From Candidatus Methylacidiphilales bacterium (GTDB lineage Bacteria; Verrucomicrobiota; Verrucomicrobiia; Methylacidiphilales; JAAUTS01): DNA of 33,372 bases. The translations under genes and the position numbers were made by a program. The DNA lies in the NCBI GenBank assembly GCA_028713655.1, contig JAQTNW010000039.1, forward strand, positions 1 to 33,372. The letters are read 5' to 3'. The notes beneath the pieces are model-generated. The model saw only the letters and a program-made list of their open reading frames with translations, was not told the DNA's origin and did not search any database. This document shows positions 4,607 to 26,302 of this stretch, one piece after another; position 1 is the stretch's first letter; each line of letters starts with the position of its first letter.

Positions 4607-5917
4607 ATGAATATCCTTCAAAAATTATTGAGAATGAACTGGTACCTGTTTGTCCTGATGCTGGGGCTGGCGGTGGCGGGTGTCTTTTTTATCAGGAGCG
4701 CCACCAACCAATCCGACGCGGCGGAAATGCAGGTCGCGGCCGGGCAACAGCGGATGTGGCTGATCGTCGGCCTGGTTCTGTTTTTTGTGGTTTCCCTGAC
4801 AAATTACGAGTTTATCCTCCGGATCGGGCCCTTGATTTACGCGGCCTCGCTGTTGCTGCTGGTTGCCGTGCTGTTCATCGGCCATGAGGTCAATGGCGCT
4901 AAAAGTTGGATCCGTTTTGCCGGTGTTGGGATTCAGCCGATTGAATTCAGCAAGGTGGCTTATGTCATCGGCCTGAGCTGGCTTTTGCTCAGCATGAGCG
5001 AGCATGTCAAAAAGCTCTGGTTTTTAATCGGGGCGGTTGGCGTGACGGCCTGCCTGCCGATTCTTCTTATCATGCGGCAGCCGGATCTTGGCGGGGCGGC
5101 TGTATTTATGCCGATCACGTTTTGCCTTTTGTGGGTGGGCGGGGCCAGCAAGCGTTATCTTATGATCCCGGTATTGGCGGCTGTGTTTGGAGGATTGTTC
5201 GGCTACCTTGTGATTTACAAGGCGCAATGGGACGGGACGCTGCAGGGGTTGCCAAAGGCGACGGTCGATGCCGTGTTCCTGCCGTTCCATAAAAAGGACA
5301 AACCCGACGACGCGGTGCCCAAAGCGCCCTTCGTTCCGCTTTCCACGAAGAAACCGGAGAAAGGCGAGCCGGAACCAACGGAAAGCAAGGAGAAGGTTCT
5401 TTTGAAGTCCTATCAACTCAATAGAATTAAAACATTCTTCAACCCGGATCTGGATCCTCTGGGCGCTGCATGGACGATCCGCCAGTCCCTCATTGCGATC
5501 GGATCGGGCGGGCTCAAAGGCAAGGGATATCTCAAGGGCGACCAAAACATCTACGGCTTCCTGCCCAAAAACATCGCCTACAACGATTTTATCTTTTCAG
5601 TCATTGGGGAGGAGTGCGGTTTTGTCGGAAGTTCGATCTTTGTGATTTGCGAAGGCCTGCTGATCATGGGTATGCTGTCGGTGGCCTCGCGCTCGAAGGA
5701 CATGGGCGGGGCGCTGCTGGCCGCGGGCATGGCCGGAATGTTTTTTGCCCATTATTTTGAAAATGTTGGTATGACAATCAAGGTGTTGCCCATTACGGGG
5801 ATTCCCCTGCCATTCACCAGTTACGGGGGTTCGTTCCTCGTGGCCTGCATGATCGGAATGGGCCTGGTGCAAAGCGTGTGGATCCACCGCCGCGACTATT
5901 ATGAAAAGCAATTTTAA
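4607..5917 (+). CDS. rodA: SEDS peptidoglycan glycosyltransferase RodA
   Basis: RodA polymerises lipid II into glycan strands for side-wall growth and works with PBP2. I chose the ATG at 4607 (436 residues) because the upstream in-frame ATG at 4535 lies inside mrdA and would add a hydrophilic leader not typical of the family. About ten membrane helices are visible. The region around D283 in DPLGAAW, followed by QSLIAIGSGGLKGKG and later DFIFSVIGEE, matches the catalytic extracytoplasmic loop and conserved core of SEDS enzymes. An unusual charged stretch of about 35 residues, rich in Lys, Pro and Glu (roughly 227-262), sits just before the catalytic region. Confidence 0.95.
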   Translation: MNILQKLLRMNWYLFVLMLGLAVAGVFFIRSATNQSDAAEMQVAAGQQRMWLIVGLVLFFVVSLTNYEFILRIGPLIYAASLLLLVAVLFIGHEVNGAKSWIRFAGVGIQPIEFSKVAYVIGLSWLLLSMSEHVKKLWFLIGAVGVTACLPILLIMRQPDLGGAAVFMPITFCLLWVGGASKRYLMIPVLAAVFGGLFGYLVIYKAQWDGTLQGLPKATVDAVFLPFHKKDKPDDAVPKAPFVPLSTKKPEKGEPEPTESKEKVLLKSYQLNRIKTFFNPDLDPLGAAWTIRQSLIAIGSGGLKGKGYLKGDQNIYGFLPKNIAYNDFIFSVIGEECGFVGSSIFVICEGLLIMGMLSVASRSKDMGGALLAAGMAGMFFAHYFENVGMTIKVLPITGIPLPFTSYGGSFLVACMIGMGLVQSVWIHRRDYYEKQF

Positions 5918-5932
5918 CAGAAAGAGGCATAT

Positions 5933-7504
5933 ATGATACTGGACAAAATCAGAGGGTTTTTGGGATTGAAAAAGAAAAGCGAGCAAAAGGAAATCATCAT
6001 CAATATCGAACCGCTGGAGCGCCGTGTGGCGTTGCTGGAAGGCGGAGTTCTGGAGGAATTCTCCATCGAACGCGACAGCGACCGGAGCATTTCCGGGAAC
6101 ATCTACAAAGGGAAGGTGCATAACGTTGAGCCGGCGCTCAAGGCGCTTTTCGTCGAGATCGGGGTCGATAAGAACGCCTTCCTTCACTACTGGGACGCCA
6201 TGCCTGCCGCGCTGGATTCCGGGGTGGAAAAGATCGACCGCGGAGGCAAGTCGAATAAAGGCAGGAAGCTGACGCATAACGACATTCCGAAGCTATACCC
6301 GCCGGGCGCCGACATCATTGTGCAGGTGACCAAGGGCCCCATTGGGACCAAGGGCGCACGCATTACGACTAACATCTCCATGGCGGGGCGTTACCTGGTG
6401 CTCATGCCCTACAGCGATCAATTCGGCATTTCCCGGAAAATCGAGGACCCCAAGGAACGGCAGCGTCTCCGCAAGATCCTGTTTGAGCTGGATGTGCCGG
6501 ACGGCATGGGGGTGATCCTGCGCACCGCGGGCGATGGAATGAAGGCCCGCTTTTTTGTGCGCGATCTGGCCCTGTTGCTCGAGCGCTGGCAGAATATTTC
6601 CCAGAATATCGACAGCATCAAGGCGCCTGCGTTGCTGCTGGCCGAGCCGGACATTGTCGAGCGCACGGTGCGCGACTTTTTGACCGATGACGTGGACCGG
6701 ATTGTGGCCGATGACGAGGATACTGCGAACCGGATCAAAACGCTGGTGCGGGCGATTTCCAAGCGTTCGGAACGGAAGGTGATTTATCATCATGAGCCGC
6801 TTCCTGTTTTTGAAAAATACCAGGTCAACAAACAGATCGAGAACGCCTTCCGCCGGCTTGTCTGGCTGAAGTCGGGCGCCTATCTGGTGATTGATGAGAC
6901 CGAGGCGCTGGTGGCCATCGATGTGAACACCGGCCGCAACAAGGGCGGGGACGACACCGAGAACACCATTTTCAACACCAATATCGAGGCTGCGGACGAA
7001 GCCGCCCGGCAACTTCGTCTGCGAAATATCGGCGGGCTGATCATCGTCGATTTCATCGATATGAAGTCGCGCAAAGACCAGCACGAAGTGGTGCGGCATT
7101 TCAAGGAATGCCTGAAGCGGGACAAGGCCAAGACGCATGTGCTCCCGATTTCGCCGCTCGGCATCCTGGAAATGACCCGTCAGCGCGTGCAGGAGAGCAT
7201 CAGCCGTTCGGTCTATATGGAATGCCCCGCGTGCAAGGGCAAGGGAATGGTCAAGACACCGGAGACCATGAGTGTTGAAATCCAGCGAGAAATCGGGCGT
7301 TTGCTGGCCAAATACCCGGACGTGCATGAGTTGAAAGTCACCGTCCATCCGAAGGTTCTGGAACGCCTGCGCTCGGAAGATGAAGAGCTGCTTGTCGATT
7401 TGGAGCGGAAATACGCCGGGCGCCTGACATTCAAGAGCGACCACAATTTCCATTTCGAGGAATTCACCGTGCTGAACAATCTGACCGGAGAAGAGCTGAA
7501 GTAA
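5933..7504 (+). CDS. rng: Ribonuclease G/E family protein
   Basis: RNase G and RNase E are single-strand endoribonucleases that process rRNA and tRNA and start mRNA decay. The 523-residue protein is RNase-G sized, without the long RNase E scaffold tail. It has an N-terminal S1-like RNA-binding region starting near SGNIYKGKVHNVEPALKALF. The DNase-I-like catalytic domain has metal-binding acidic residues D330 (AIDVNTGRN) and D373 (VDFIDM). The zinc-link C431-P-A-C434 motif tetramerises this family. The ATG at 5933 follows an AGAGG sequence and lies 15 bases after rodA, so it is probably the last gene of the mre operon. Confidence 0.95.
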   Translation: MILDKIRGFLGLKKKSEQKEIIINIEPLERRVALLEGGVLEEFSIERDSDRSISGNIYKGKVHNVEPALKALFVEIGVDKNAFLHYWDAMPAALDSGVEKIDRGGKSNKGRKLTHNDIPKLYPPGADIIVQVTKGPIGTKGARITTNISMAGRYLVLMPYSDQFGISRKIEDPKERQRLRKILFELDVPDGMGVILRTAGDGMKARFFVRDLALLLERWQNISQNIDSIKAPALLLAEPDIVERTVRDFLTDDVDRIVADDEDTANRIKTLVRAISKRSERKVIYHHEPLPVFEKYQVNKQIENAFRRLVWLKSGAYLVIDETEALVAIDVNTGRNKGGDDTENTIFNTNIEAADEAARQLRLRNIGGLIIVDFIDMKSRKDQHEVVRHFKECLKRDKAKTHVLPISPLGILEMTRQRVQESISRSVYMECPACKGKGMVKTPETMSVEIQREIGRLLAKYPDVHELKVTVHPKVLERLRSEDEELLVDLERKYAGRLTFKSDHNFHFEEFTVLNNLTGEELK

Positions 7505-10855: not shown

Positions 10856-11025
10856 AAGATAAGCATGAAGAAGAATATTTAATAATCAAGCTATCTAATA
10901 CATTAGATGGCATAATAAACGATTATGCTGGAATTTGGCGCTGGGAGTCGGGTTTGAGCCTGTGTGGCAAGGCGAGGGTTCAAATCCCTTTTCAAATGCG
11001 CCATAACCCGCTACCAAGTCAAACC

Positions 11026-11649
11026 ATGGCAATGCGTGAAGCGAGACCTTTTCTGTTGATTTTGGGAGTTTTGACCCTGGCCTTCGCCTTTTTCGCATGT
11101 TGGTCGGCAATCCTGCCCGCGCTTCTTTTCGTGTATGTGCTTTATTTTTTCCGCGACCCCGAGCGCACACCACCCGGCGACCCGCTTGCCATTGTCAGCG
11201 CGGCTGACGGGAAAGTCATAGCGGTGGACGAAGTGGCTGAGGACGCCTTCACCCGGACAAAGATGAAGCGCGTGGCGGTTTTTCTTTCGGTATTCGACGT
11301 GCATGTGAACAGGGCGCCTTATGCCGGGACCGTGAAAAAGCGGCATCATCATGCGGGCGAGTTTCTGGATGCACGGCTTCCGGAGGTGGATGTTAAAAAT
11401 GAGGCCATGAACTGGCTGTTGGAAACCGCCAGGGGCTCCCTGGTCCTCCGGCAAATTGCCGGATTGATTGCCCGGCGCATTGTGGCCTGGCGGAATGAGG
11501 GGGACGTGCTGCAAACCGGGGAGCGGTTCGGCATGATCCGTTTTGGTTCGCGCACGGATGTTTTTTTACCTCTCGATTGCGAGATAAAAGTCAAAATTGG
11601 AGATCGTGTGAAAGGCGGCGAGTCGGTGATCGCCCGCTGGAAACAATAA
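11026..11649 (+). CDS. psd: Phosphatidylserine decarboxylase, short form
   Basis: Psd converts phosphatidylserine to phosphatidylethanolamine at the membrane. The 207-residue protein is the short single-gene form. It has an N-terminal hydrophobic segment (PFLLILGVLTLAFAFFACWS), a conserved FDVHVNR motif and the self-cleavage site FGSR, where S175 becomes the pyruvoyl group. The ATG at 11026 was chosen because an earlier in-frame start at 10954 would add 24 non-conserved residues from a region with tRNA-like T-arm sequence. It lies 18 bases before pssA, which makes the substrate. Confidence 0.93.
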   Translation: MAMREARPFLLILGVLTLAFAFFACWSAILPALLFVYVLYFFRDPERTPPGDPLAIVSAADGKVIAVDEVAEDAFTRTKMKRVAVFLSVFDVHVNRAPYAGTVKKRHHHAGEFLDARLPEVDVKNEAMNWLLETARGSLVLRQIAGLIARRIVAWRNEGDVLQTGERFGMIRFGSRTDVFLPLDCEIKVKIGDRVKGGESVIARWKQ

Positions 11650-11667
11650 ACCGGGAATCCATTGCGT

Positions 11668-12504
11668 ATGAAAGAACATGAACCGAAGATGGTCTATGTG
11701 TTGCCGAGCCTGATGACAGCCGGCAATTTATTCTGCGGCTTCATGGCCGTGCTGAACATTTTTGAAGGCGCCATCCAGTGGAAAGCGCTGACGGTGGGTT
11801 GGGCGACGGGATCCGTCGGCTGGACTGTTTATTATGAACGGAGCCTGCTTTTCATCATAGGCGCCTTTCTCTTCGACATGCTGGACGGCAGACTGGCGCG
11901 ACTGGGAGGTCAGGAAAGCCCGTTTGGGCGCGAATTCGATTCCCTGGCCGACATTGTGTCCTTCGGGGTCGCTCCCGCCCTTCTGCTTTTCAAGATTGTG
12001 TTGTATGAATTGCCGAACCGGGCGGGCTGGTTCATAGCCTCCATTTACCTCGTGTGCGGGGCCCTGCGCCTGGCGCGGTTCAATGTGCTGGCCGCCACGC
12101 CCGGCAAGGGCGGGTTGAAGGATTTTACCGGCTTTCCCATACCCGCCGCTGCCGGCCTCATCGCATCGATCACCCTGTTGCTGCTGCATATCTACGAAAA
12201 CGACGGCGAAATCGGCAACTGGAAGTATGTGCTGGCGGCGCTGATGATTTTTCTCAGCTACATGATGTTCAGCAAATTCCACTACCCGAGTTTCAAGGCC
12301 CTGGACTGGCGCGCCCAGTTTTCGATCCCGCGCCTGCTGGCCTTTGTGCTGTGCATTGCGCTGGTGGTCATTTACTACCGCTTCAGCCTGGCAATCGTTT
12401 TTACCTGTTATTTGATCTATGGGTTTGTCAGGCCCTATGTCTCGAAGGCGTGGCGCTCCGACTTCGAGGAGGAAGACGAGGAAAATAACGGCTCCCCAGG
12501 CTGA
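11668..12504 (+). CDS. pssA: CDP-diacylglycerol-serine O-phosphatidyltransferase
   Basis: PssA transfers phosphatidyl from CDP-diacylglycerol to serine, giving phosphatidylserine, which Psd then decarboxylates. The 278-residue membrane protein has the CDP-alcohol phosphotransferase motif beginning D73-G-R-L-A-R, then G...EFDSLAD with the correct spacing, and about six to eight membrane helices. The ATG at 11668 was preferred to a TTG two codons earlier. Together with psd it makes the usual two-gene phosphatidylethanolamine operon. Confidence 0.95.
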   Translation: MKEHEPKMVYVLPSLMTAGNLFCGFMAVLNIFEGAIQWKALTVGWATGSVGWTVYYERSLLFIIGAFLFDMLDGRLARLGGQESPFGREFDSLADIVSFGVAPALLLFKIVLYELPNRAGWFIASIYLVCGALRLARFNVLAATPGKGGLKDFTGFPIPAAAGLIASITLLLLHIYENDGEIGNWKYVLAALMIFLSYMMFSKFHYPSFKALDWRAQFSIPRLLAFVLCIALVVIYYRFSLAIVFTCYLIYGFVRPYVSKAWRSDFEEEDEENNGSPG

Positions 12505-12642: not shown

Positions 12643-13419
12643 ATGAAAAAGAACCGTCATCGGAAGAAGCAACACTCCTCTTCCGAACGCCGTTCAGTTG
12701 CAGTTTCCTGGTTCGAGGCAAAAAAGCCGGTTCTCCAGTATGCGGGAATCTTTGCGGGCCTTGTGCTCCTTTTTGCCCTTCTGTCGCTGACCCCGGCTTA
12801 TCAATCGCATATGGTCCGGGAAGTGGAATGGAACGTGAAGCTGGCGCGGGGGATGCTGTCTCTCTTTGGAGGAGGCGCATCAGTGGTTACGGGGGCCACG
12901 TTTTCTCGGGAAACCGAAGCGATTCTCGAAGTCAAACCGGAGTGTTTCAGCCTGTATTACTGCTGGCTATTTTGCCCTGCGGTGCTGGCCTTTCCGGCTC
13001 CACTACTCTGGCGGTTTGCAGGAGCATTACTGGGGTCGGTGATTTTATTGACCATGAATGTTCTGCGCGTCGGAAGCCTCTTTTGGGTCGGCAGCTATTA
13101 TCCGGGCTATTTTACCGCCGCGCATGATCAGTTCTGGCCTTTGCTTTCGCTCTTTGTGATAGCCGCCTTGATGGGAGGATGGCTGTTGGCTCTGCAAGAT
13201 CCCGCCAGCCAACAGACCGTCCTCACCTACGAGGGCCTGGGGCGCGTGAAGACTTTGGTCGATGGCGTTGGCACGATCAACTGGACTTATGACGCTGAGG
13301 GCAACCCGACGGATGTCACTCAGAGTAGCGCTAACATCCACCGCACTTTTGACGACCTAAGCCGCTTGCACACCTGCACCGACACTTCCGGCATCGAGCG
13401 GGGCCTTACGGAGCTGTAG
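12643..13419 (+). CDS. Exosortase-like membrane protein fused to YD-repeat (Rhs) sequence
   Basis: Residues 1 to about 184 look like a small exosortase/archaeosortase, a membrane transpeptidase-like enzyme thought to process proteins with C-terminal sorting tags. There are about five membrane helices, and the expected catalytic set can be placed at C101 (PECFSLYY; C107 and C111 nearby), R142 (NVLRV) and H161 (AAHDQFWP). From about residue 185 the sequence changes abruptly to YD repeats (LTYEGLGRVKTLVDGVG, WTYDAEGNPTDVTQ, RTFDDLSRL), which belong to Rhs shell proteins and not to exosortases. A strong AGGAGG at 12626-12631 supports the ATG at 12643. The fusion looks like a recombination product. 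An alternative reading is that the enzyme still works and the tail is harmless. Confidence 0.72.
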   Translation: MKKNRHRKKQHSSSERRSVAVSWFEAKKPVLQYAGIFAGLVLLFALLSLTPAYQSHMVREVEWNVKLARGMLSLFGGGASVVTGATFSRETEAILEVKPECFSLYYCWLFCPAVLAFPAPLLWRFAGALLGSVILLTMNVLRVGSLFWVGSYYPGYFTAAHDQFWPLLSLFVIAALMGGWLLALQDPASQQTVLTYEGLGRVKTLVDGVGTINWTYDAEGNPTDVTQSSANIHRTFDDLSRLHTCTDTSGIERGLTEL

Positions 13420-13517
13420 GCGCTGCCGTCTATTATTTAATCGACAGCTTTTACCCGGGGGAGGTGCAAAACAATTCGCACATGAAATTTTGTCACGTGA
13501 AGCACAGTTGCCAGTAA
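13404..13517 (+). pseudogene. Probable remnant of an Rhs C-terminal tip, out of frame
   Basis: In the frame two bases on from the YD tail of the exosortase-like gene, 13404-13517 reads GPYGAVGAAVYYLIDSFYPG and continues for 18 residues to a TAA. The 'GAAVYYLIDSFYPG' pattern is the kind of hydrophobic, Gly/Ala-rich stretch often seen after the Rhs core. The YD tail ends in the other frame at 13419. I infer a frameshift or deletion that broke an Rhs C-terminus. The resemblance is from memory of the family, not a search. Confidence 0.4.
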
Positions 13518-13613
13518 TAATCCCATGAATTTATTTCTGGGAAATGCCAAATTTGAACTTTAAGATTTCGATTCGCTAAAGTTATGAATTTTGTCCTTAA
13601 GAAATATGCTGCC

Positions 13614-14030
13614 ATGAAACGACTATACTATTACACGTTCTATTGCCTCTATAAATTTGCGGCGAAATCATGCACTGAGGGTTGGAAGCAGTGGTATGGA
13701 GTGGCATTGATTACGCTAATTGAATTGTGGCTGCTTGGGATAGTAGATCTTTGGTGTGAAATTTGGACGGGCCACTCATATTTTTTTAGTTTGGGCCGTC
13801 CGGCTCTATTAATTATAGCAGCGGTAATTTATGCGCTAAATTACTATCCAACAATCGCGCATGCCAGGTGGCGGCTATATGCGAACGAGTTCGACAATCT
13901 GGATCAGGGGCAGCGCGTCAGATGGGTGATTGCAATTATTACCGGAATTGCCTGCACAATCGCGTTGCTATTCTACTCATTTCACGTATTTGGTGAAAAA
14001 ATGAGCGCACTGCGTGCTGCTGCACATTGA
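13614..14030 (+). CDS. Small membrane protein, possible Rhs immunity protein
   Basis: Function is unknown. The 138-residue protein (from the ATG at 13614; an ATG at 13584 is also in frame) starts MKRLYYYTFYCLYKFAAKS and has about three membrane helices: GVALITLIELWLLGIVDL, ALLIIAAVIYALNYY and WVIAIITGIACTIALLFYS. It is the first of four AT-rich small membrane-protein genes right after a broken Rhs end, the position where immunity genes are found. That role is inferred from context only. Confidence 0.6.
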   Translation: MKRLYYYTFYCLYKFAAKSCTEGWKQWYGVALITLIELWLLGIVDLWCEIWTGHSYFFSLGRPALLIIAAVIYALNYYPTIAHARWRLYANEFDNLDQGQRVRWVIAIITGIACTIALLFYSFHVFGEKMSALRAAAH

Positions 14031-14181
14031 AGAATTTTGCAAAGCATGAAGGCCTTACTCCCAATTCAATTCTCAACGAACGATATTGTAAAATGTTAGT
14101 CAAACAAAAATGGCGGAACAATCGCACTGCGAGGATTTACAGCCATCCATTGCAACCGCATTTCCCAAGCTACGAGGAAAC

Positions 14182-14658
14182 ATGAAGAGAGAAAACATTG
14201 ACCACTTCGCGACTCAAAGCGTATGGGGAATGATTGGCTTGTCGCTCATCACGCTCACATTTTACTTCCCGTTCTGGCTGCGGAAGACTTCCCGTATTGT
14301 CAACGAGCTTTTGCCGTCAAATCCAATCGGCGCATGGTACTTTCCCGTCGGCATCATTTTGACGGCGCTCAACTTCGGAATGCTCATTCCAGAAATGCTG
14401 ACTGACGACGATCCTACCGTCATGATAGTGAGCAAACTTCTCAATCGCATCGATACCGTATTTGTCATTTTTTGGGCGTTCAAAATCCGGAATAGGATAC
14501 ATGTGATTCTGGAATCGGAAAAGAAGACGCCCCTCTGGTTCAACACCTTTTGGACATTTTTCTTCCAGATGTTTTACATCCAATTTCGGATCAACAGGAT
14601 CAAGAAAGCCCAACAAACGAATACACGGGAGGCCACCCCTGTTGCACAGGATCCGTAA
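14182..14658 (+). CDS. Small multi-pass membrane protein (DUF4234-like)
   Basis: The 158-residue protein begins MKRENIDHFATQSVWGMIGL and carries membrane segments near residues 14-32, 51-70, 88-107 and 123-135. The start pattern 'WG...L.LITL.FYFPFWL' resembles DUF4234-type membrane proteins, a family of unknown function. I chose the ATG at 14182 because a GAGGAAA sequence lies 4-10 bases upstream; an ATG at 14110 is possible. It is the second gene of the AT-rich run and could be an orphan immunity gene. Confidence 0.6.
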   Translation: MKRENIDHFATQSVWGMIGLSLITLTFYFPFWLRKTSRIVNELLPSNPIGAWYFPVGIILTALNFGMLIPEMLTDDDPTVMIVSKLLNRIDTVFVIFWAFKIRNRIHVILESEKKTPLWFNTFWTFFFQMFYIQFRINRIKKAQQTNTREATPVAQDP

Positions 14659-14691
14659 TTTTTGGCAGAGAAACAAGAATAACGTTTCCAG

Positions 14692-15150
14692 ATGAAATCT
14701 GCATTGCGATACCTGATTTTGGCAACAACTGCCGTCGTCTCAATTTCGATTGCACATAGGTTTTGGATTAAATTCCAATCTGTGGCGCCAGAACGGCGAA
14801 TCAATGTTTCGTTCCTGGCGTTTGGTTATACACTATTGATCGGCAACGCTCTCTATGCGGCAACACGCATTTTTGAGCGCAATGCAGTGAAGATACAAAT
14901 ATGGCCATTACTCTTGCGTATTATTGCAGCTATCTTCCTAACAATAGGGAATATATGCGGAGTTACTTATGTGATTAAATATAACAGATTAGCTACACTA
15001 CAAAGACCCGTTATATGGACGGATTTATTCGTGCTTATCTTTTTGTATTATACCTTAATATGGCTCTTCAGAAATCGTCCAATAACGCATTTCGATCTAT
15101 GCCTAGGCTTGGGATCTTTTGCCACATGGTATCTAGCTACATTCCACTAA
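14692..15150 (+). CDS. Hypothetical four-helix membrane protein
   Basis: This 152-residue protein of unknown function has about four membrane helices: residues 5-22, 42-58, 72-95 (LLLRIIAAIFLTIGNICGVTYV) and 109-123. No catalytic motif is seen. Its AT-rich composition and rare-codon use match its two upstream neighbours and differ from the metabolic genes of the window, which suggests the run was acquired together. Confidence 0.55.
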   Translation: MKSALRYLILATTAVVSISIAHRFWIKFQSVAPERRINVSFLAFGYTLLIGNALYAATRIFERNAVKIQIWPLLLRIIAAIFLTIGNICGVTYVIKYNRLATLQRPVIWTDLFVLIFLYYTLIWLFRNRPITHFDLCLGLGSFATWYLATFH

Positions 15151-15167
15151 GAGTCGAGGATTGAGCA

Positions 15168-15533
15168 ATGAATGAAAAGACCATGTCCCGCTTTTCAAAA
15201 GCCTATTTGTTTGTTGTCTGGCTATTGCCGCTGCTTATTTTCATCATGCCGTTTGCAGGCCTTTTATTTGCCTCCTCTTATTACGCGCCACTCGCTACAA
15301 AGCCGGGGTTGATATTGTCATGTTTCGGCTTTTTGGGAGATGCGATTCTTCTCCTACTCCTGCATCTTATTTGGATCACGTTTACATGGACTAAATGCCG
15401 AAAACTTTCAGCTTGGATTCTTTACCCCTTGCGCGCCACACTCTGTGTTTGCTGTTTATTGCTAACTGTGATGGCATTCAGCATCTTTTATTTGGGGCCA
15501 CCCTGCTTAGTTTATGTTTCTCGTGAAAATTGA
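15168..15533 (+). CDS. Hypothetical three-helix membrane protein
   Basis: This 121-residue protein of unknown function is dominated by three hydrophobic segments: FVVWLLPLLIFIMPFAGLLF, a Leu-rich one around residues 58-70 and one near 85-105. It starts 17 bases after the preceding gene and is the last of the four small membrane-protein genes. No homologous family is recognised. A start at the second ATG (15183) is possible. Confidence 0.55.
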   Translation: MNEKTMSRFSKAYLFVVWLLPLLIFIMPFAGLLFASSYYAPLATKPGLILSCFGFLGDAILLLLLHLIWITFTWTKCRKLSAWILYPLRATLCVCCLLLTVMAFSIFYLGPPCLVYVSREN

Positions 15534-15568
15534 CAAAGTGTTAAATGGGGAATGGAGTCAACGCTTGT

Positions 15569-15985
15569 TTATTCTCCAATAATTTTTACCAGGACGCGCT
15601 TTTTGCGTTTGCCGTCGAACTCGCCGTAAAAAATCTGTTCCCAGGGGCCGAAATCCAGCTTCCCCTTCGTGACGGCGACAACAACCTCCCGGCCCATGAC
15701 GGTCCGCTTGAGATGTGCGTCGGCATTGTCCTCGTAGCCGTTGTGTTTGTACTGCGAGTGCGGCTTTTCGGGAGCCAGCTTTTCGAGCCAGGTTTCAAAA
15801 TCCTGATGCAGGCCTGATTCGTCGTCGTTGATGAAAACGCTGGCGCTGATGTGCATGGCGTTTACCAAACAAAGTCCTTCCTTGATACCACTGTCCTGCA
15901 GGCATTGTTGCACCTGGTCGGTGATGTTGACAAAGGCGCGGCGTTGCGGGATTTCAAACCAGAGTTCGTGTCGATGGCTTTTCAT
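15569..15985 (-). CDS. YjbQ / UPF0047 family protein
   Basis: The 138-residue protein matches the YjbQ family closely: [57 protein letters not shown] and the closing [15 protein letters not shown] motif. Family members are small beta-rich trimers, and a weak thiamin-phosphate synthase activity has been proposed for some. The true role is unsettled. The conserved 'HTT' is AMHISAS here, a mild departure. It is monocistronic and convergent with the small-membrane-protein run. Confidence 0.88.
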
Positions 15986-16200: not shown

Positions 16201-17175
16201 ATGAAAAAAGGACCCATCTCCCAGTTCATCCAGCATCATTACCGTCACTTCAATGCGGCCGCCCTTGTGGACGCCGCAAAAGGCTATGAGGCCCATCTGG
16301 AGGCCGGAGGAAAAATGATGGTGACGCTGGCGGGCGCCATGAGCACGGCGGAGCTGGGGGTTTCCCTCGCGGAAATGATCCGTCAGGACAAAATCCAGAT
16401 CATCTCCTGCACCGGCGCCAACCTCGAAGAGGACCTGATGAACCTTGTGGCGCACAGCCATTACCAGCGCATCCCGGGCTATCGCGATTTGACTCCCAAG
16501 GACGAATGGAAACTGCTCGAGGGCGGCTTGAACCGGGTGACCGACACCTGCATCCCGGAAGAGGAAGCATTCCGCCGCCTGCAGAAACACATTTATGAAT
16601 TATGGAAAGCGGCCGACAAAAAAGGCGAGCGCGCATTCCCGCATGAGTTCATGTACGAAATGATCCGCAGCGGCGTGTTGAAGCAATATTATGAAATCGA
16701 TCCCAAGGACTCCTGGATGATCGCTGCGGCTGAAAAGAATCTGCCGATTGTTGTGGGCGGTTGGGAAGATTCCACAATGGGCAATATTTTTGCCTCGTAT
16801 GTGATCAAAAACGACATCAAAGCCACCACGATGAAAAGCGGGATCGAATATATGGTCTTTCTAGCCGATTGGTATCGCAAAAATTCCGGGGGCAAGGGCG
16901 TCGGCTTTTTCCAGATCGGCGGGGGCATTGCGGGCGACTTCCCGATCTGTGTGGTGCCCATGATGTACCAGGATCTGGAATGGCACGACGTGCCGTTCTG
17001 GTCCTACTTTTGCCAGATCAGCGACAGCACCACGAGTTACGGTTCCTATTCCGGCGCCGTGCCGAATGAAAAGATCACCTGGGGCAAACTGGGAATCGAC
17101 ACGCCGAAATTCATCGTGGAGTCCGACGCCACCATCGTCGCGCCTTTGATTTTTGCGTATTTGCTGGGCTGGTAA
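16201..17175 (+). CDS. Deoxyhypusine synthase family protein
   Basis: True deoxyhypusine synthase moves an aminobutyl group from spermidine to a lysine of eIF5A. Bacteria lack eIF5A, and bacterial homologues are thought to act in polyamine chemistry, such as homospermidine formation. The 324-residue protein shows VTLAGAMSTAELG, ISCTGANLEEDL, the GGG(I)AGDFPICVV segment and SDSTTSYGSYSGAVPNE. These are followed by TWGK, whose K296 aligns with the catalytic lysine of the eukaryotic enzyme. The ATG at 16201 is well placed. No other polyamine gene is adjacent, so the substrate is not set by context. Confidence 0.9.
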   Translation: MKKGPISQFIQHHYRHFNAAALVDAAKGYEAHLEAGGKMMVTLAGAMSTAELGVSLAEMIRQDKIQIISCTGANLEEDLMNLVAHSHYQRIPGYRDLTPKDEWKLLEGGLNRVTDTCIPEEEAFRRLQKHIYELWKAADKKGERAFPHEFMYEMIRSGVLKQYYEIDPKDSWMIAAAEKNLPIVVGGWEDSTMGNIFASYVIKNDIKATTMKSGIEYMVFLADWYRKNSGGKGVGFFQIGGGIAGDFPICVVPMMYQDLEWHDVPFWSYFCQISDSTTSYGSYSGAVPNEKITWGKLGIDTPKFIVESDATIVAPLIFAYLLGW

Positions 17176-19833: not shown

Positions 19834-22800
19834 ATGTGCATTTTCCGTTTCATCTTTGTTTTGTTCTGCTGTAGCTTTAGCGTCGCCCAAGCCCGGGAAC
19901 TGGGCCTGGTGCAGGGCGATCTGAGCTGGCAGTTGCAGGAGTCCATTCGTCCGGAACCGAACGCGCAGGGCTTCCCTCTGTCGTTCAGGCTTGTTTACAA
20001 CAACAAGAACCCGAACGACTCTCTCTTCGCCAACTTTCAGTGCCTGGCCCTGGACTCTTCCGTGGATTTCACGGACACGAATACGTTCGACTGGTACACG
20101 ACCCAGGGCGAAAAGCTACGCTTTCGCTTCAATGGCAAAACGAAGACATGGTCGGACTTTTCGCATCAGTGGCAGGCCATCACAGACCGTGATGAGGTGG
20201 TGATCTACAACGCGGCGGGCTGGTGTTATTTTTATAAAAGCGGGCGCTTGCAATTGCTGGATTCGCCCACAGGCCGCTCCCTGGATTTTATCTACAAGAA
20301 CAAGGACCTGGTTGAAGTACGACTGGAAGGGGCGAGCCCGAACACACCCCGGTCTTCGACCGCCTCTTCTGGCGCTGGAGGGGATTATATTACGCTGATC
20401 GCGTTGATTTGCGATCAATACCATCGCTGTACAGATTTCGATGTTCAGGGGCAGGCGCATCATTTCGTGTATGAATCGCGGCGGGACGGGCTTCTCTTGT
20501 CGTGGGAACAGCCTTCGAGCAAGCGCTTGGACTTTGCTTATACCGATATTGGGGTGCTGGTTGAAATTCAGGAATGGAAGCGGAACCCGGCAGGTCAGTT
20601 GGCCAAAGTGGACAAGCCCAAGAAGTTTGTCTCCAAATATTTCCCCCCGGATGTCCTGCACCATTCGCTCAATTCGGAGGACGACAAAAAAATCCCGGCT
20701 AATTGGCGGCTGATGGACGACGGAACTTATTCCTACACGTACAATGACCGGCCGAAGGGCAGGTTTTCCTCAAAATTCAGGCGACCCCGGGGCTATTCCG
20801 AAGTTACGATGGAAGATAATAACGGATTGAAGCAGTCGATGATCGTGAATCCGGAAGAAGCTGTGGAAACGGCGGTGAATTCCTATGGGCAGGCGTTCAA
20901 AACCTATTTTTATCGCGCGCCGGGGAAGCCTTTCAACGGGAAACTGTGGCGGATCGAGCAGGCTGGCGTGACGATTCTCGAAAACATCTATGACCCCAAG
21001 ACCGGCTGGCTGGCGCAAAGCATCGATGCGAACGGGATTTCAACGTATTACGATTATGATCCTGGCGTCACGAGGAAAAGCGCCAATGCCAAGCTGAAGG
21101 TTGGCGGCAAGACATTGAGCATGGCGGGCTTTGATCCCAAGCCTGTCAGGGTTTCGCAGGGGACCGACCGCAAGACAGCCGAGGTCCGGCAGGAAGTTGA
21201 ATATGATGAAAAGGGCCGGGTGTTGGCCAGGACGGACGAGTCAGGCAAAACGACCCGCATTGTATATTCCGCCTTGGGCGAAGTGGCGCAGGTGATTCCG
21301 CCGGACGGTCCAGCGCTGAAGTTCACGTATGATGCCTTTGGGCGGCCCACGGAGTTGTCTGTGGCCGATCCCAAGGATGCGTTAGCGCAACCGAGGCGCA
21401 TCCAGGTGGAATATGACAATTTGGGGAGAGTGTCGAAGCAAACAATGCCGGACGGAATGGCGACAGAATATTCCTACGATGCGCAGGGGCATGTGCATGA
21501 AGTCAAGCAGAAGGGCGTGGTTGTGGCGTCGTACAGTTATGACAGGGACGGCCATGTTGTGGAGCAGGTTGATGGGTTGAAGCGGAAGAAGAAGTTGGAA
21601 TGGGACGCCAAGGGGAACCAGGTGGCGGAAATATTGCCGGACGGCAGCGCAACGCGGTTTGAATATGACGCGCAGGGGCGGCGCACAGCGCAGATCGACG
21701 GCGACGGAAACAAGATCACGTTTGGTTATGACAGCCATGGGAAGCTGGTCCGCCAGGCCAACGCGCTGGGGCAGGTTTTGACTTGGACCTATGACGAGCG
21801 CGGACTACCGGTGGAGCGCGCCAACGGGGTGCAAAAGATCCGCTATGTGTATGACAATAAACACCGACTGGCGCTTTTGGATTATGGCGCGCCCGGACAG
21901 CAGGTGGCGTATTCGTATGATGAGCGTGGACGACTGGCGATGGAGCGTACGCCGACGTTCCGGGTGGAGCGGTTTTACGATGTCCAGGGCCGGGCCAGTG
22001 CGCTTCGCATGACCGATCTGCGCGCCAATTATCAGGAAGCAATTGGAGGGACTGCCGCGCCGACGCTCGCAGCTCCTGAGCAGGTGATCCGTACGAGCTA
22101 CAATTGGCGCGGTCAGAAAACGGCAGTCACGCTGTGCGAGGCTGTTTTGAATGACAAAACCGTTGGAAAGCCGAATTACAAACTGCTCCAGCAAACCGAG
22201 TATGTGTATGATTCGAAAGGGCGCCTGTTGGAGATCCGGTCGGATGGGAAAAGCGTGATTAAAAACAGTTTTGACGCCAATGACCGCCTGCTTTTGAGGG
22301 AGTATGGGAACGGGATGCGGGCGGCTTACGCCTACAATGCGGCGGGCATGTTGGTAAAAGAGGAAATTTCCGGCGGGCCGCTCAAAACACCGCTTTTGTA
22401 TCTGCTCGAGTGGGATGCCGCAGGGCAACTAGTCCGGAGGCGTTGGGACAATCGCGCGATGGCGTATGAGTATGATCCGGCGGGACGACTGGTGAAGGTG
22501 ACCGGGGATGGAGGGTATAAGCAAGGGCAGGTTTTGGAATCGTACACGTATGACAAGGCCGGAAACATCATAGAAAAAACTGTGGATGGCACAGCCACTG
22601 CGCTGTCGTACAATGCCGCGAATCAGCTTGTCAGTTCGACTTCGGGCGGGAGAACATTTAATTATGCCTATGATGCCGCCGGGAGAATGACGGGAACCGG
22701 TACGGGCACGGAGTCTGCCAGGTCGCTTTATGGCTGGCTGGATAAAGTGATTGCCTTGGAAAAAGGGGCAATTCCCAGTCAGCCTGATCCAAGTCCCGCG

Positions 22801-23361
22801 CAGGGGCAGGCATTGCAGGCATCGGCGCCGTCCACTGCATCCGCGAATCTTTTGCAGCCCGTAAGTTTTACCACCGACCCGCAAGGGTCGCGGCGTCTTG
22901 GGTTTGATTATTATCCGGACGGCCATTTGGCCGTAAAAGGTTTGTTGCCATCCGCCGGCGGAGCAGAGCAGGCGGCGGCGTTGAAATCGTCGGGTTTGGA
23001 GTCGTTCTGGGGCCGGATGAAATATTGGTTTGGAGCGGGCGAGGAACAGCCATTGGCGCCGAGCCTTGACCAAATCCGCATGCAAGTTGCGGAGCGCTAT
23101 GTCTGGGACGGATTGGGATTGCTGCGGCGTAACAACGAGGTGTATGTCATTGAGCCGCATGCCAACGGCGGCGCGGTCGTGGCGTCATCGGTCATTGGGA
23201 AGCCGGGCGAGATCAAGTATTACATCAATGATTTGTTGGGAACGACTCTGGGGGAAGTGACGCCGCTGGGGGTGAGGGAACAGGATCTGAGCTCGTTTGG
23301 GTTGCCGAAAAAGACGGAGGCGGATGTTTCCAAGCCGGAGCCGATCCATGTGCCGCAGTGA
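19834..23361 (+). CDS. Large exported YD-repeat (Rhs shell) protein lacking the core C-terminus
   Basis: The 1,175-residue protein has a Cys/Phe-rich signal peptide (CIFRFIFVLFCCSFSVAQA) and an N-terminal domain to about residue 400. About two dozen YD units follow to about 945, such as YDEKGR, YDAFGR, YDNLGR, YDERGR and YDPAGR. These units form the spiral beta shell that encloses toxins in Rhs and teneurin proteins. Near residue 1134 the Rhs core begins (YYINDLLGTTLGEVTPLG, SSFGLPKK), but the protein stops 30-40 residues later without the YTG...RYYDP...DPxG part or any tip. That missing part is encoded upstream, in 18475-19320. The PAAR and VgrG adaptor parts of type VI Rhs proteins are absent; export appears to be Sec-dependent. 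Confidence 0.85.
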   Translation: MCIFRFIFVLFCCSFSVAQARELGLVQGDLSWQLQESIRPEPNAQGFPLSFRLVYNNKNPNDSLFANFQCLALDSSVDFTDTNTFDWYTTQGEKLRFRFNGKTKTWSDFSHQWQAITDRDEVVIYNAAGWCYFYKSGRLQLLDSPTGRSLDFIYKNKDLVEVRLEGASPNTPRSSTASSGAGGDYITLIALICDQYHRCTDFDVQGQAHHFVYESRRDGLLLSWEQPSSKRLDFAYTDIGVLVEIQEWKRNPAGQLAKVDKPKKFVSKYFPPDVLHHSLNSEDDKKIPANWRLMDDGTYSYTYNDRPKGRFSSKFRRPRGYSEVTMEDNNGLKQSMIVNPEEAVETAVNSYGQAFKTYFYRAPGKPFNGKLWRIEQAGVTILENIYDPKTGWLAQSIDANGISTYYDYDPGVTRKSANAKLKVGGKTLSMAGFDPKPVRVSQGTDRKTAEVRQEVEYDEKGRVLARTDESGKTTRIVYSALGEVAQVIPPDGPALKFTYDAFGRPTELSVADPKDALAQPRRIQVEYDNLGRVSKQTMPDGMATEYSYDAQGHVHEVKQKGVVVASYSYDRDGHVVEQVDGLKRKKKLEWDAKGNQVAEILPDGSATRFEYDAQGRRTAQIDGDGNKITFGYDSHGKLVRQANALGQVLTWTYDERGLPVERANGVQKIRYVYDNKHRLALLDYGAPGQQVAYSYDERGRLAMERTPTFRVERFYDVQGRASALRMTDLRANYQEAIGGTAAPTLAAPEQVIRTSYNWRGQKTAVTLCEAVLNDKTVGKPNYKLLQQTEYVYDSKGRLLEIRSDGKSVIKNSFDANDRLLLREYGNGMRAAYAYNAAGMLVKEEISGGPLKTPLLYLLEWDAAGQLVRRRWDNRAMAYEYDPAGRLVKVTGDGGYKQGQVLESYTYDKAGNIIEKTVDGTATALSYNAANQLVSSTSGGRTFNYAYDAAGRMTGTGTGTESARSLYGWLDKVIALEKGAIPSQPDPSPAQGQALQASAPSTASANLLQPVSFTTDPQGSRRLGFDYYPDGHLAVKGLLPSAGGAEQAAALKSSGLESFWGRMKYWFGAGEEQPLAPSLDQIRMQVAERYVWDGLGLLRRNNEVYVIEPHANGGAVVASSVIGKPGEIKYYINDLLGTTLGEVTPLGVREQDLSSFGLPKKTEADVSKPEPIHVPQ

Positions 23362-23375
23362 GAATACACGCGACA

Positions 23376-23446
23376 GCGTCATTGCGAGGAGGACGGCAGA
23401 AGCCGGACGACGCGGCAATCCAGAGCACATGGATCGCCACGGCTCA
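23376..23446 (+). repeat. 'gcgtcattgcgagg' type dispersed repeat
   Basis: The sequence GCGTCATTGCGAGGAGGACG, then GACGCGGCAATCCAGA and ATGGATCGCCACGG, matches the general plan of a widespread bacterial dispersed repeat (tcattgcgagg...gaagcaatcc). I recognise it by eye; no search was possible. Confidence 0.55.
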
Positions 23447-23508
23447 GAAGGCCACACACCCCGAAGCGGTCGCTACGGCGACATTTCTGCCCCTTTTGAT
23501 AGAGGGGA
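23447..23508 (-). repeat. Dispersed hairpin repeat, right copy flanking the Rhs locus
   Basis: Read on the minus strand this begins TCCCCTCTATCAAAAGGGGC and continues with AGAAATGTCGC, TAGCGACCGCTTC and GGGGTGTGTGGCCTTC. It is the inverted partner of 17856-17914. The pair brackets the Rhs-core gene, the small membrane-protein gene and the Rhs shell gene. Confidence 0.7.
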
Positions 23509-23563
23509 TTGAGCCTCCTAATGAACATATCGGGCAGGATGTTGAAAGATAGAATGTTAGCTA

Positions 23564-23791
23564 AAACGGCAACGCCGTTTCGTCTTTCAGCCCAGGGTTG
23601 GGCCGCTTGCGGGACTACCCTGGGTAAAATCAAAAAATCATCCCGAACCCTGAATGGGTTCCATCCTCCTATCGCCCGTGCCACCCCACCACGACTCCTT
23701 CAGAGTTGGGGTCAATTTTTTACAGATACCGATGCGAATGGAAAAAACATCCGCTGCGCAAGATGCGCAGCGGTGCGGGCAGGATGCCCGC
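23564..23791. repeat. Array of short hairpins
   Basis: Stem-loops follow one another: AAACGGC-aac-GCCGTTT (23564-23580), CCCAGGGT...ACCCTGGG (23591-23624), GAACCC...GGGTTC (23645-23661), GCTGCGCA...TGCGCAGC (23753-23771) and GCGGGC...GCCCGC (23775-23791). The intervening 'gactccttcagagttggggtc' adds a weaker one. The array ends at the first transglutaminase-like gene and may overlap its true start. Confidence 0.65.
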
Positions 23792-25050
23792 GCTCCCGGA
23801 GATACAGGGGATTCCTCCTTGCCGGTCTCGTTAGCTTTTGTTTCCTGCTGTCCAGGGCTGAGGCGGAGTTGTTGACATTGGATGAAGCGTTAAAGCGGTC
23901 AGGAGAAAACCGTCCGCAGCTTGAACAGGCGTTGAAGGAAACGCCGGGCCAGGAGATGGAACTGCTGATTCGCGGCGCCCGACAATATGATCTTGTTAAT
24001 ATTACGGCGGAGCATTTGAAGGACGACATTGCGTATGCGCGGAAGGCGCGTGAAGAAATGCCGTGGGGCAGGGAGATCCCGGATGAACTTTGGCGGAACT
24101 GGGTGTTGCCGTATCGGATAGCCGATGAGGACCTGGACGATTGGCGCCCGGAGTTTTACGAGATGCTGGCGCCTTTGGTGAAGGAGGCGAAAAGCAGCAA
24201 GGAAGCGGTTTTGCTCATCCACAAATGGCTGTGGCAAGACGTGCCGGGAGGCCGGGTGCGATTTGAGGTCTCGGAAAATCGCGATCAAACGCCGAGGCAA
24301 CTGCTTCAGCAAATCAAAATCGGACGCTGCTTTGAAATCAATCTATTGTTCACCGCGCTCTTGCGCTCGGCGGGCATTCCGGTCCGGCATACGGGCCCGC
24401 CCTGGTGGACGATGTGGGGGTCGTATCATTACTGGGTGGAGTATTGGGACACGGAATCGAAGACGTGGTGTTCCATTGAAGGTGCCAACGCAGATCCCGA
24501 CGGCTTTATGGCGGTGAATCAGACCCTGCCCAGATCAGGGAATACAGCGTTTGCGGCGGCCTATGCGTTAGCCGCCTATGGCAATGAAGCCGATCCGATT
24601 GGGCGGGAGGCCTGGGGTGGCGCAGTTCCGGCTGATTGTGCCTATCAAGCAACCGGCAAGCTGCAATTGGCATTCATGAACGCGGGATCAGGCAAGGCCG
24701 CAAACTATGCGGTTTATGTCTGGAGCAATTCGGCCTGGCGCCCGGTGGCATTGGGTTCGACGGACAAAATGCACGAAGTGAATCTGGCGCCAACAGCCGG
24801 ACGCTATCCTTATCTGGTGACGGCATCGCTGGGAAAAGCCACGGCCTGCGCCTTGGCGGAAGTAAAGCCGGGGCAGGACACATCCGTGACCCTGATGGAT
24901 TCACCGGCGGGCCCGGATTTGACCGTGGAATTTGTTTCCAAAAAAATGCTGGAAGAGCAGCAGAAAAAAGACGCTGAAACAAAAAAGCAAAAGGAGAAGG
25001 ACGATAAGAAAAAGAAGAAAAATCCAGTCACGGGAGCCGCGGCGGGATGA
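23773..25050 (+). CDS. Exported transglutaminase-like protein with Cys-His present
   Basis: The domain has the transglutaminase/papain-like layout: GRCFEINLLFTALLRSAGIP with C186, then YHYWVEYW with H219, and TWCSIEG with E236 where the third residue (normally Asp) is expected. Cross-linking, peptidase or amidase action on proteins or peptidoglycan is typical of the family. The hydrophobic segment GFLLAGLVSFCFLLSRAEAE looks like a signal peptide. The start is uncertain: the open frame extends back to ATG 23509, but that part is made of hairpin repeats, so I use the in-frame GTG at 23773, which leaves a short Arg-rich leader. The C-terminus is a Lys/Glu-rich coiled tail. It overlaps the next gene by four bases. 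Confidence 0.75.
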   Translation: MRAGCPRSRRYRGFLLAGLVSFCFLLSRAEAELLTLDEALKRSGENRPQLEQALKETPGQEMELLIRGARQYDLVNITAEHLKDDIAYARKAREEMPWGREIPDELWRNWVLPYRIADEDLDDWRPEFYEMLAPLVKEAKSSKEAVLLIHKWLWQDVPGGRVRFEVSENRDQTPRQLLQQIKIGRCFEINLLFTALLRSAGIPVRHTGPPWWTMWGSYHYWVEYWDTESKTWCSIEGANADPDGFMAVNQTLPRSGNTAFAAAYALAAYGNEADPIGREAWGGAVPADCAYQATGKLQLAFMNAGSGKAANYAVYVWSNSAWRPVALGSTDKMHEVNLAPTAGRYPYLVTASLGKATACALAEVKPGQDTSVTLMDSPAGPDLTVEFVSKKMLEEQQKKDAETKKQKEKDDKKKKKNPVTGAAAG

Positions 25051-26258
25051 ACATAAATCCTCCAAAATTAATATTGTTAGGGCTGGCGGTGTGGCTTGTT
25101 CCTCATGCGGAACTGGAAGCCCAATATATGGATTCAACGGCGCAAACCGAGTCGCAGGCCTATCTGGACAAAGTCAGGTCGGAACTCGGCGCCGAGGCGC
25201 TGCAATCCATGCCGGAACAGCATGTTCGTTTTCTCGCGCAAAGCATGGGACGGCTGGACCGGGCGACAGTGCCATCCTCCATATTCATGGAACATCTCCG
25301 GCTGGCGGAAAGCGTGCGGACGCGATTTTATACGGACATGCCCGATGAAGCGTTTTGCAGTTATGTTCTTTCCTTCCGGATCCGGGAGGAGTTGTCTTCG
25401 CATGCGGGATGGCGCGGCCGGTTTAAAACCGAACTCGATCCGGTGCTTGGCGATGAAAAGGATCCCGCTGCCGCTGCGGCGAGGATATTCGATTGGGTGT
25501 CGGGAAAAATAAAACTTTACGGAAAACTACGCTCGTATCCGCTGAATCTAAAAGGCGATTTGGACCCGTTGACGACCCTGAGAGGCGGATGTGGAAATGA
25601 AATCGACGCCGCGATTTTGGCAGTGGCGGCTTTAAGGTCGGCGGGTATTGCCGCGAGGATCGTCTATGCGCCAGTGCTTGCGGATGAGGACGGTGGAAAA
25701 GTCTGGGCCGAGTATCGGACGCGCGACGGATGGGCGCCGTGGGCGCCGTCGTTGGCGCTTGATGCCTTGGACGCCTCCGTGCAGGGGATTCCAAAAATAA
25801 AAGCCGGCATGCACAGGGATTGGTTAAAGAAAGAATTTGCGGGACGGTTCGGCTATGTGCTGGCAAATCCGCAGCGTCCGGCCAACATCACATGCGCATA
25901 TACATCTGTGACGTCTATTTGGATGAGTCCAAAACCCCTGGACAAGGAACCTTTCAATTGCACGCTCATGTTGTGGTGCAGGGGGCGGTTGCAACCGTTG
26001 ATGGGCAGGGACATTTACAACCCCGAGCCGGATAATTCCGCAGCAGGCGTGGGTCCCGGGAAGTATGTAATTGTGGCGGGTGACATAAAATCTGTGGGGA
26101 CCCTGAAGCAAATGCAATTGAATGCGGGTCAAACGGGATGGTATGTGATGGATTTCGAAAAGGGCGAGGCGCAATTTCAGATTGCGGATAAAAAACCCGC
26201 CTTTTTCGAGTGGGACCCCGAGACGCTGCCGCCAACGGATCCGGTCAAGGATTGGTGA
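25047..26258 (+). CDS. Exported transglutaminase-like protein, apparently degenerate
   Basis: The 403-residue protein has a signal-like N-terminus (PKLILLGLAVWLVPHA). Its domain keeps the fold signature LRGGCGNEIDAAILAVAALR, SAGIAARIVYAP and VWAEYRTRDGWAPWAP. C182 is present, but the 'HAW' position reads KVW, so K218 replaces the catalytic His, and the following 'DPT' reads APS. It may be a non-catalytic binding partner of the preceding protein. The ATGA overlap (25047-25050) indicates translational coupling of the pair. Position in the genome and matching domain type suggest a duplication. Confidence 0.75.
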   Translation: MNINPPKLILLGLAVWLVPHAELEAQYMDSTAQTESQAYLDKVRSELGAEALQSMPEQHVRFLAQSMGRLDRATVPSSIFMEHLRLAESVRTRFYTDMPDEAFCSYVLSFRIREELSSHAGWRGRFKTELDPVLGDEKDPAAAAARIFDWVSGKIKLYGKLRSYPLNLKGDLDPLTTLRGGCGNEIDAAILAVAALRSAGIAARIVYAPVLADEDGGKVWAEYRTRDGWAPWAPSLALDALDASVQGIPKIKAGMHRDWLKKEFAGRFGYVLANPQRPANITCAYTSVTSIWMSPKPLDKEPFNCTLMLWCRGRLQPLMGRDIYNPEPDNSAAGVGPGKYVIVAGDIKSVGTLKQMQLNAGQTGWYVMDFEKGEAQFQIADKKPAFFEWDPETLPPTDPVKDW

Positions 26259-26302
26259 ACCGGATGCCATACCGCGTTTGAATATAACCCGCACGGATTC
26301 CT

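What the first reader, a model, noticed from the sequence alone, without database searches (positions are those of the whole stretch)
12643..13517. Exosortase-like protein fused to YD repeats, then an out-of-frame Rhs-tip remnant
Residues 1-184 keep the exosortase triad candidates C101, R142 and H161. The reading frame then passes directly into two or three YD units. Just past the stop, in another frame, sequence reading GPYGAVGAAVYYLIDSFYPG looks like a post-core Rhs stretch. This implies that an Rhs gene 3' end was joined to an exosortase gene. Either a sorting enzyme gained a tail, or a deletion removed the gene's own end and most of an Rhs gene.
Basis: partly seen in the sequence, partly recalled or inferred. 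Interest (0 to 1): 0.65.

Follow-up and report, generated by a model that had tools for sequence, protein, structure and literature searches.

The report
Sorting-enzyme gene fused to Rhs scrap
A deletion-type join has fused an otherwise normal bacterial exosortase (protein-sorting enzyme) gene, in frame, to a leftover piece of an Rhs/YD-repeat gene; a second leftover piece and a likely companion membrane-protein gene lie just behind it, so this looks like genome decay rather than a new kind of enzyme.

Summary
ORF 12643-13419 (258 aa) is an exosortase up to about residue 184. It matches the exosortase/archaeosortase signature model above cut-off and is closest to XrtH. C101, R142 and H161 are invariant in nine relatives. 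The ORF then continues in frame into about three YD units (RHS_repeat above Pfam's gathering score). None of the nine aligned relatives has such a tail: they end 9-21 residues after the conserved W180, against 78 here. In four of five close relatives a conserved ~200-aa membrane-protein gene directly follows the exosortase; I found no homologue of it in this window or genome.

The out-of-frame stretch GPYGAVGAAVYYLIDSFYPG is real. Another genome of the class has a 70%-identical stretch near the C-terminal end of an ORF, directly followed by a homologue of window ORF 13584-14030. That same gene follows the scrap here. The scrap is therefore the truncated end of a tip/membrane-protein pair, in a GC-poor trough like those described downstream of Rhs genes.

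Best reading: deletion joins removed the exosortase's last residues, probably its partner gene, and most of an Rhs gene. The enzyme may still work; the tail probably has no function. No reads were available, so misassembly is not excluded.

The parts
12643..13194 (+). Exosortase (XrtH-like) catalytic domain, residues 1 to about 184, with C101 (nt 12943), R142 (nt 13066), H161 (nt 13123)
   Evidence: NCBIfam TIGR04178 39.8 bits (cut-off 23), TIGR04177 54.9 bits (below its cut-off 86); triad invariant in nine relatives
13195..13398 (+). Remnant of a YD/RHS-repeat gene (about three YD units), in frame with the exosortase; the ORF closes at 13417-13419
   Evidence: PF05593 23.6 bits, gathering score 22; TIGR01643; 45% identity over 57 aa to a 2076-codon reading frame in G182; no second copy in the own genome
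13401..13460 (+). Remnant of a C-terminal tip (GPYGAVGAAVYYLIDSFYPG) in another reading frame, truncated
   Evidence: 70% identical over 20 aa to the end of an ORF in G076 (L126:9121-9180), which is followed there by a homologue of the gene at 13584 here
13584..14030 (+). Small membrane protein with three TM-like segments, immunity-like, homologue of the gene behind the G076 tip
   Evidence: tblastn 27% over 124 aa, E 5.5e-14; hydropathy
14110..15533 (+). Further small ORFs (14110-14658 DUF4234-like but below cut-off, 14692-15150, 15168-15533), all with TM-like segments, possibly orphan immunity genes
   Evidence: ORFs, Pfam, hydropathy, GC trough 0.38-0.49 over about 13500-15600
13183..13197 (+). 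Join 1: exosortase to YD remnant
   Evidence: Alignment to relatives ends at W180; the RHS_repeat match starts at residue 179, so the exact base cannot be fixed
13390..13403 (+). Join 2: YD remnant to tip remnant, with change of frame and no Rhs core between
   Evidence: Three-frame translation; no core signature found between YD units and tip (inspection)

Best explanation
An exosortase gene of the XrtH-like kind was joined to the remains of an Rhs-type locus by deletion. Shown: the exosortase is complete except for its last roughly ten cytoplasmic residues; the reading frame then runs through about three YD units taken from an Rhs/YD gene; after a change of frame come the last residues of a tip, and then the tip's neighbour gene, a small membrane protein. 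Inferred: one deletion removed the exosortase's own stop, the partner gene that normally follows it, and the front of the Rhs gene; a second removed the Rhs core and most of the tip. What remains is an exosortase that may still be active in the membrane and carries a cytoplasmic YD tail of no obvious use, plus an orphan immunity-like gene that may persist because it protects against relatives that carry the toxin.
For: Exosortase models and conserved triad. All nine aligned relatives end 9-21 residues after W180, the window ORF 78. A conserved partner gene directly follows the exosortase in L075, L077, L078 and L079 and was not found in the window or own genome. YD models. Tip and neighbour gene are shared in the same order with G076. 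A GC-poor trough with small ORFs starts right behind the remnant, as described behind enterobacterial Rhs genes (PMC2935791). The own genome has other loci with broken Rhs ends interleaved with small ORFs on C66, C48 and C50.
Against: The ancestral locus was not found: no genome with the intact exosortase, partner, Rhs and tip order. The YD remnant has no close relative (best 45%), so its donor is unknown and the YD part and the tip may come from different Rhs genes. The G076 tip ORF carries no recognised Rhs domain. The lack of a partner gene in the own genome rests on a 225-aa query from another family and a genome 95% complete. The YD units show no stop or obvious damage, so decay of the tail itself is not visible.
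Confidence: 0.72

Rival explanations
1. The fused protein is a working exosortase that gained a useful YD tail, for example one that binds YD-type substrates or a partner.
For: The fusion is in frame, the YD units are undamaged and all three catalytic residues are kept. In relative G019:C109 an RHS-repeat gene lies directly upstream of an exosortase and is followed by an ORF with a sorting-signal-like end, so an enzyme-substrate link to YD proteins is conceivable.
Against: None of nine relatives has such a tail. By hydropathy and charge the C-terminus is on the cytoplasmic side, where exported YD proteins would not be met (inference). In-frame joining has a one-in-three chance. The tail ends where an out-of-frame tip scrap begins. 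A single-sequence fold gives the tail pLDDT about 35-50, which decides nothing since the whole model is poor.
Confidence: 0.1
2. Assembly or binning artefact: the exosortase contig was wrongly joined to Rhs sequence.
For: Rhs/YD sequence is repetitive and a common cause of misassembly; the genome is a 90-contig draft; no reads or second assembly could be examined.
Against: The YD-tip DNA occurs once in the genome and matches no other Rhs locus there, so it is not a shared repeat that would mislead an assembler. The join lies about 13 kb inside a 33-kb contig. Two independent joins (exosortase to YD, YD to tip) would have to be wrong, while the gene order tip then membrane gene is shared with another genome.
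Confidence: 0.1
3. The YD remnant is what is left of a dedicated YD-repeat substrate gene of this exosortase, not of a toxin-type Rhs gene; deletion fused enzyme and substrate.
For: In relatives the exosortase sits next to large exported proteins with sorting-signal-like ends: RCC1 repeats (L075), Ig domains (L076), cellulase with an IPTL-CTERM-like tail just below cut-off (L077), and an RHS-repeat ORF in L079.
Against: In L079 the YD gene is upstream of the enzyme, not downstream. The scrap behind the YD units is a tip shared with a tip/membrane-gene pair, not a sorting signal.
Confidence: 0.15

Closest known systems
Exosortase H (XrtH, TIGR04177) and the exosortase/archaeosortase family (TIGR04178)
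   Same: Residues 37-182 align to 7-153 of the 158-position XrtH model; Cys, Arg and His in the expected places; short length class
   Different: 54.9 bits is below the XrtH cut-off of 86, so it is XrtH-like and not a called XrtH; it carries a 74-residue YD tail
Dissociated Rhs tips and core fragments (C-terminal displacement arrays; Jackson et al. 2009, PMC2935791)
   Same: Fragments of Rhs sequence, a GC-poor stretch and small downstream genes
   Different: In the described arrays the fragments keep a core piece nearly identical to a nearby Rhs gene plus a whole tip; here the core is gone, the tip is only an end, and no Rhs gene in the genome is a close match
artA-pssA-pssD clusters of Methanosarcina (PMC7157517)
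   Same: Here too a sorting-enzyme gene lies beside pssA and psd genes on one strand
   Different: Bacterial, only one case seen, and the relatives' exosortases are not beside these genes

Membership tests
Exosortase/archaeosortase family | Score above the signature model cut-off (TIGR04178) | tested here: met
   39.8 bits against 23
Exosortase/archaeosortase family | Conserved Cys, Arg and third catalytic residue (Arg/His) | tested here: met
   C101, R142, H161 invariant in ten sequences
Exosortase/archaeosortase family | Cognate C-terminal sorting signals on exported proteins of the same genome | not tested
Exosortase H (XrtH) | Score above the TIGR04177 cut-off of 86 bits | tested here: not met
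   54.9 bits
Rhs / YD-repeat protein | YD (RHS) repeats above curated cut-off | tested here: met
   PF05593 23.6 against 22; TIGR01643 17.6 against 15.8
Rhs / YD-repeat protein | Rhs-associated core domain before the tip | tested here: not met
   No core between YD units and tip in any frame (inspection; core-end pattern gave none here)
Rhs toxin/immunity pair | Toxic tip with a cognate immunity gene directly behind it | tested here: inconclusive
   Tip end plus neighbour gene shared with G076, but the toxin part is gone here and no function is known for either gene
Dissociated Rhs tip array | Core fragments nearly identical to a nearby intact Rhs gene | tested here: not met
   The Rhs gene at 19834-23361 shares only 27-28% with the YD remnant and no DNA-level similarity

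The most novel reading that the evidence does not exclude
The exosortase is still active and works with the psd-pssA genes just upstream (10954-12504), anchoring sorted proteins to phosphatidylethanolamine, as proposed for archaeosortase A with archaeal PssA/PssD; the YD tail is tolerated.
Probability: 0.1. Interest if true: 0.6.

Novelty: new member of a known kind. Interest (0 to 1): 0.27.

Why it matters
It shows how Rhs loci can erode and splice their scraps onto unrelated neighbour genes. An automatic annotation would call one 258-aa 'YD repeat exosortase', which would be misleading. It also gives a tip/membrane-gene pair seen in two genomes, and a membrane-protein partner directly behind XrtH-like exosortases in related genomes, both apparently without a curated family.

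Tried and rejected
(1) A copy of the remnant elsewhere in the genome: none. (2) Origin from the Rhs gene in the same window (19834-23361): only 27-28% protein similarity, no DNA similarity. (3) Close relatives of the exosortase in 84,980 genomes by exact peptide patterns: none; relatives came from whole-genome search. (4) Close relatives of YD plus tip in genome contigs: only generic YD proteins. (5) Tip among post-core sequences of collected Rhs genes: none. (6) Tip or membrane gene in plasmids, phages, viral contigs: none; YD part in plasmids: none. (7) Weak further tip matches were unrelated proteins or frames with stops. (8) Structure prediction from one sequence: mean pLDDT 49, not usable. 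(9) The exosortase as a regular YD-tailed design: rejected, no relative has it. Note: the E-value of 6.5e-31 for G076 came from a query partly made of G076 sequence and is not evidence.

Full report
What is there. The window is all of contig C39 of a 3.29-Mb draft genome in 90 contigs, 95% complete. ORF 12643-13419 encodes 258 residues. Residues 37-182 match exosortase H (TIGR04177, 9.4e-15, 54.9 bits, below that model's cut-off of 86) and residues 95-181 the general exosortase/archaeosortase signature TIGR04178 (39.8 bits, cut-off 23). It is the only match to this protein in the genome. From about residue 185 the same frame matches RHS repeats (PF05593, 23.6 bits against 22; TIGR01643, 17.6 against 15.8). 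The units read TYEGLGRV, TYDAEGNP and TFDDLSRL.

Comparison with relatives. Homologues at about 30% identity occur in one genus of the same order, and weaker ones elsewhere in the phylum. In an alignment of nine of them with the window protein, C101, R142, H161 and W180 are invariant. The nine end 9-21 residues after W180, the window protein 78. So the exosortase is complete but for a short end that should be cytoplasmic (inference from hydropathy and charge), and the YD tail is not a regular design of this group. In four of the five closest loci (L075, L077, L078, L079) a conserved membrane protein of about 200 aa starts at or just before the exosortase's end. No homologue was found in the window or elsewhere in the own genome. 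That second negative is soft, since the query comes from another family.

The out-of-frame scrap. GPYGAVGAAVYYLIDSFYPG (13401-13460) had no match in the genome itself or among Rhs post-core sequences collected from the phylum. The key came from the next gene. A search with ORF 13584-14030 found one relative among 98 genomes, in G076. In that genome the gene directly follows an ORF ending in GPMGAAGGAGYFLIDNFYPGGW plus about 40 further residues, 14 of 20 identical to the scrap. The reverse search, with 163 aa of the G076 ORF, finds in the whole own genome only this place (E 0.0013). Gene order, strand and spacing agree. The scrap is thus the truncated end of a tip whose neighbour gene is kept. 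In G076 no YD repeats were found near the tip within the 18 kb read, so the link of this tip to an Rhs protein rests on its position behind YD units in the window and on the general pattern.

Setting. GC falls from about 0.55 to 0.39-0.48 from about 13500 to 15600, where several small ORFs with TM-like segments lie. Jackson et al. describe Rhs genes as generally followed by a GC-poor region with fragmentary core and tip sequences (PMC2935791). The same genome has other loci of this kind: on C66, C48 and C50, Rhs ends are interleaved with small ORFs. The intact YD gene at 19834-23361 in the window is of a different sort and not the donor.

Mechanism. The most likely history is two deletion-type joins. 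One linked the exosortase's last membrane segment to the middle of a YD gene, removing the enzyme's stop and probably its partner gene. The other linked the YD units to the tip's end, out of frame, removing the core. Shown: both joins, the missing partner homologue and the kept neighbour gene. Inferred: that deletions caused them, their order, and a single Rhs donor. Whether the enzyme works is open: the catalytic residues are intact, but the short C-terminal end and the partner are gone, and sorting signals in the genome were not searched for.

Alternatives. A functional YD-tailed enzyme is possible but has only the in-frame join (one chance in three) and undamaged repeats in its favour. Misassembly cannot be excluded without reads, but the remnant is single-copy in the genome, lies well inside the contig and would need two wrong joins. 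A fused dedicated substrate is suggested by L079, where an RHS-repeat ORF sits beside an exosortase, but the gene order and the tip speak against it.

Verdict. It is an informative piece of genome decay, not a new system.

Noticed in passing
window 10954-12504, + strand: psd (phosphatidylserine decarboxylase) and pssA genes lie directly upstream of the exosortase on the same strand. In Methanosarcina artA lies with pssA and pssD, and these act in archaeosortase-dependent lipid anchoring in Haloferax (PMC7157517). The relatives' exosortases are not near psd/pssA, so this may be coincidence.
   Followed up: partly
L075:4308-4970, L078:1461-2060, L079:4092-4769, L077 about 5539-6102: A conserved ~200-aa membrane protein directly follows XrtH-like exosortases in four loci (28-48% identity to each other); no curated family reached its cut-off. 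One copy matches the exosortase models weakly (E 0.001).
   Followed up: partly
L079:5314-10001: An RHS-repeat gene directly upstream of an exosortase, followed by a short ORF with a sorting-signal-like end, possibly one broken gene: a candidate YD-type exosortase substrate.
   Followed up: no
window 19834-27709: An 1175-aa YD-repeat protein without a recognised Rhs core, followed by two transglutaminase-like genes and an O-antigen-ligase-like gene on the same strand.
   Followed up: no
L126:7942-9731 (G076): A tip-like ORF end and a small membrane gene with no YD repeats found nearby: an orphan pair without a Pfam or NCBIfam hit above cut-off.
   Followed up: partly
window 16201-17175: A deoxyhypusine-synthase family gene (PF01916, 6.5e-39).
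   Followed up: no
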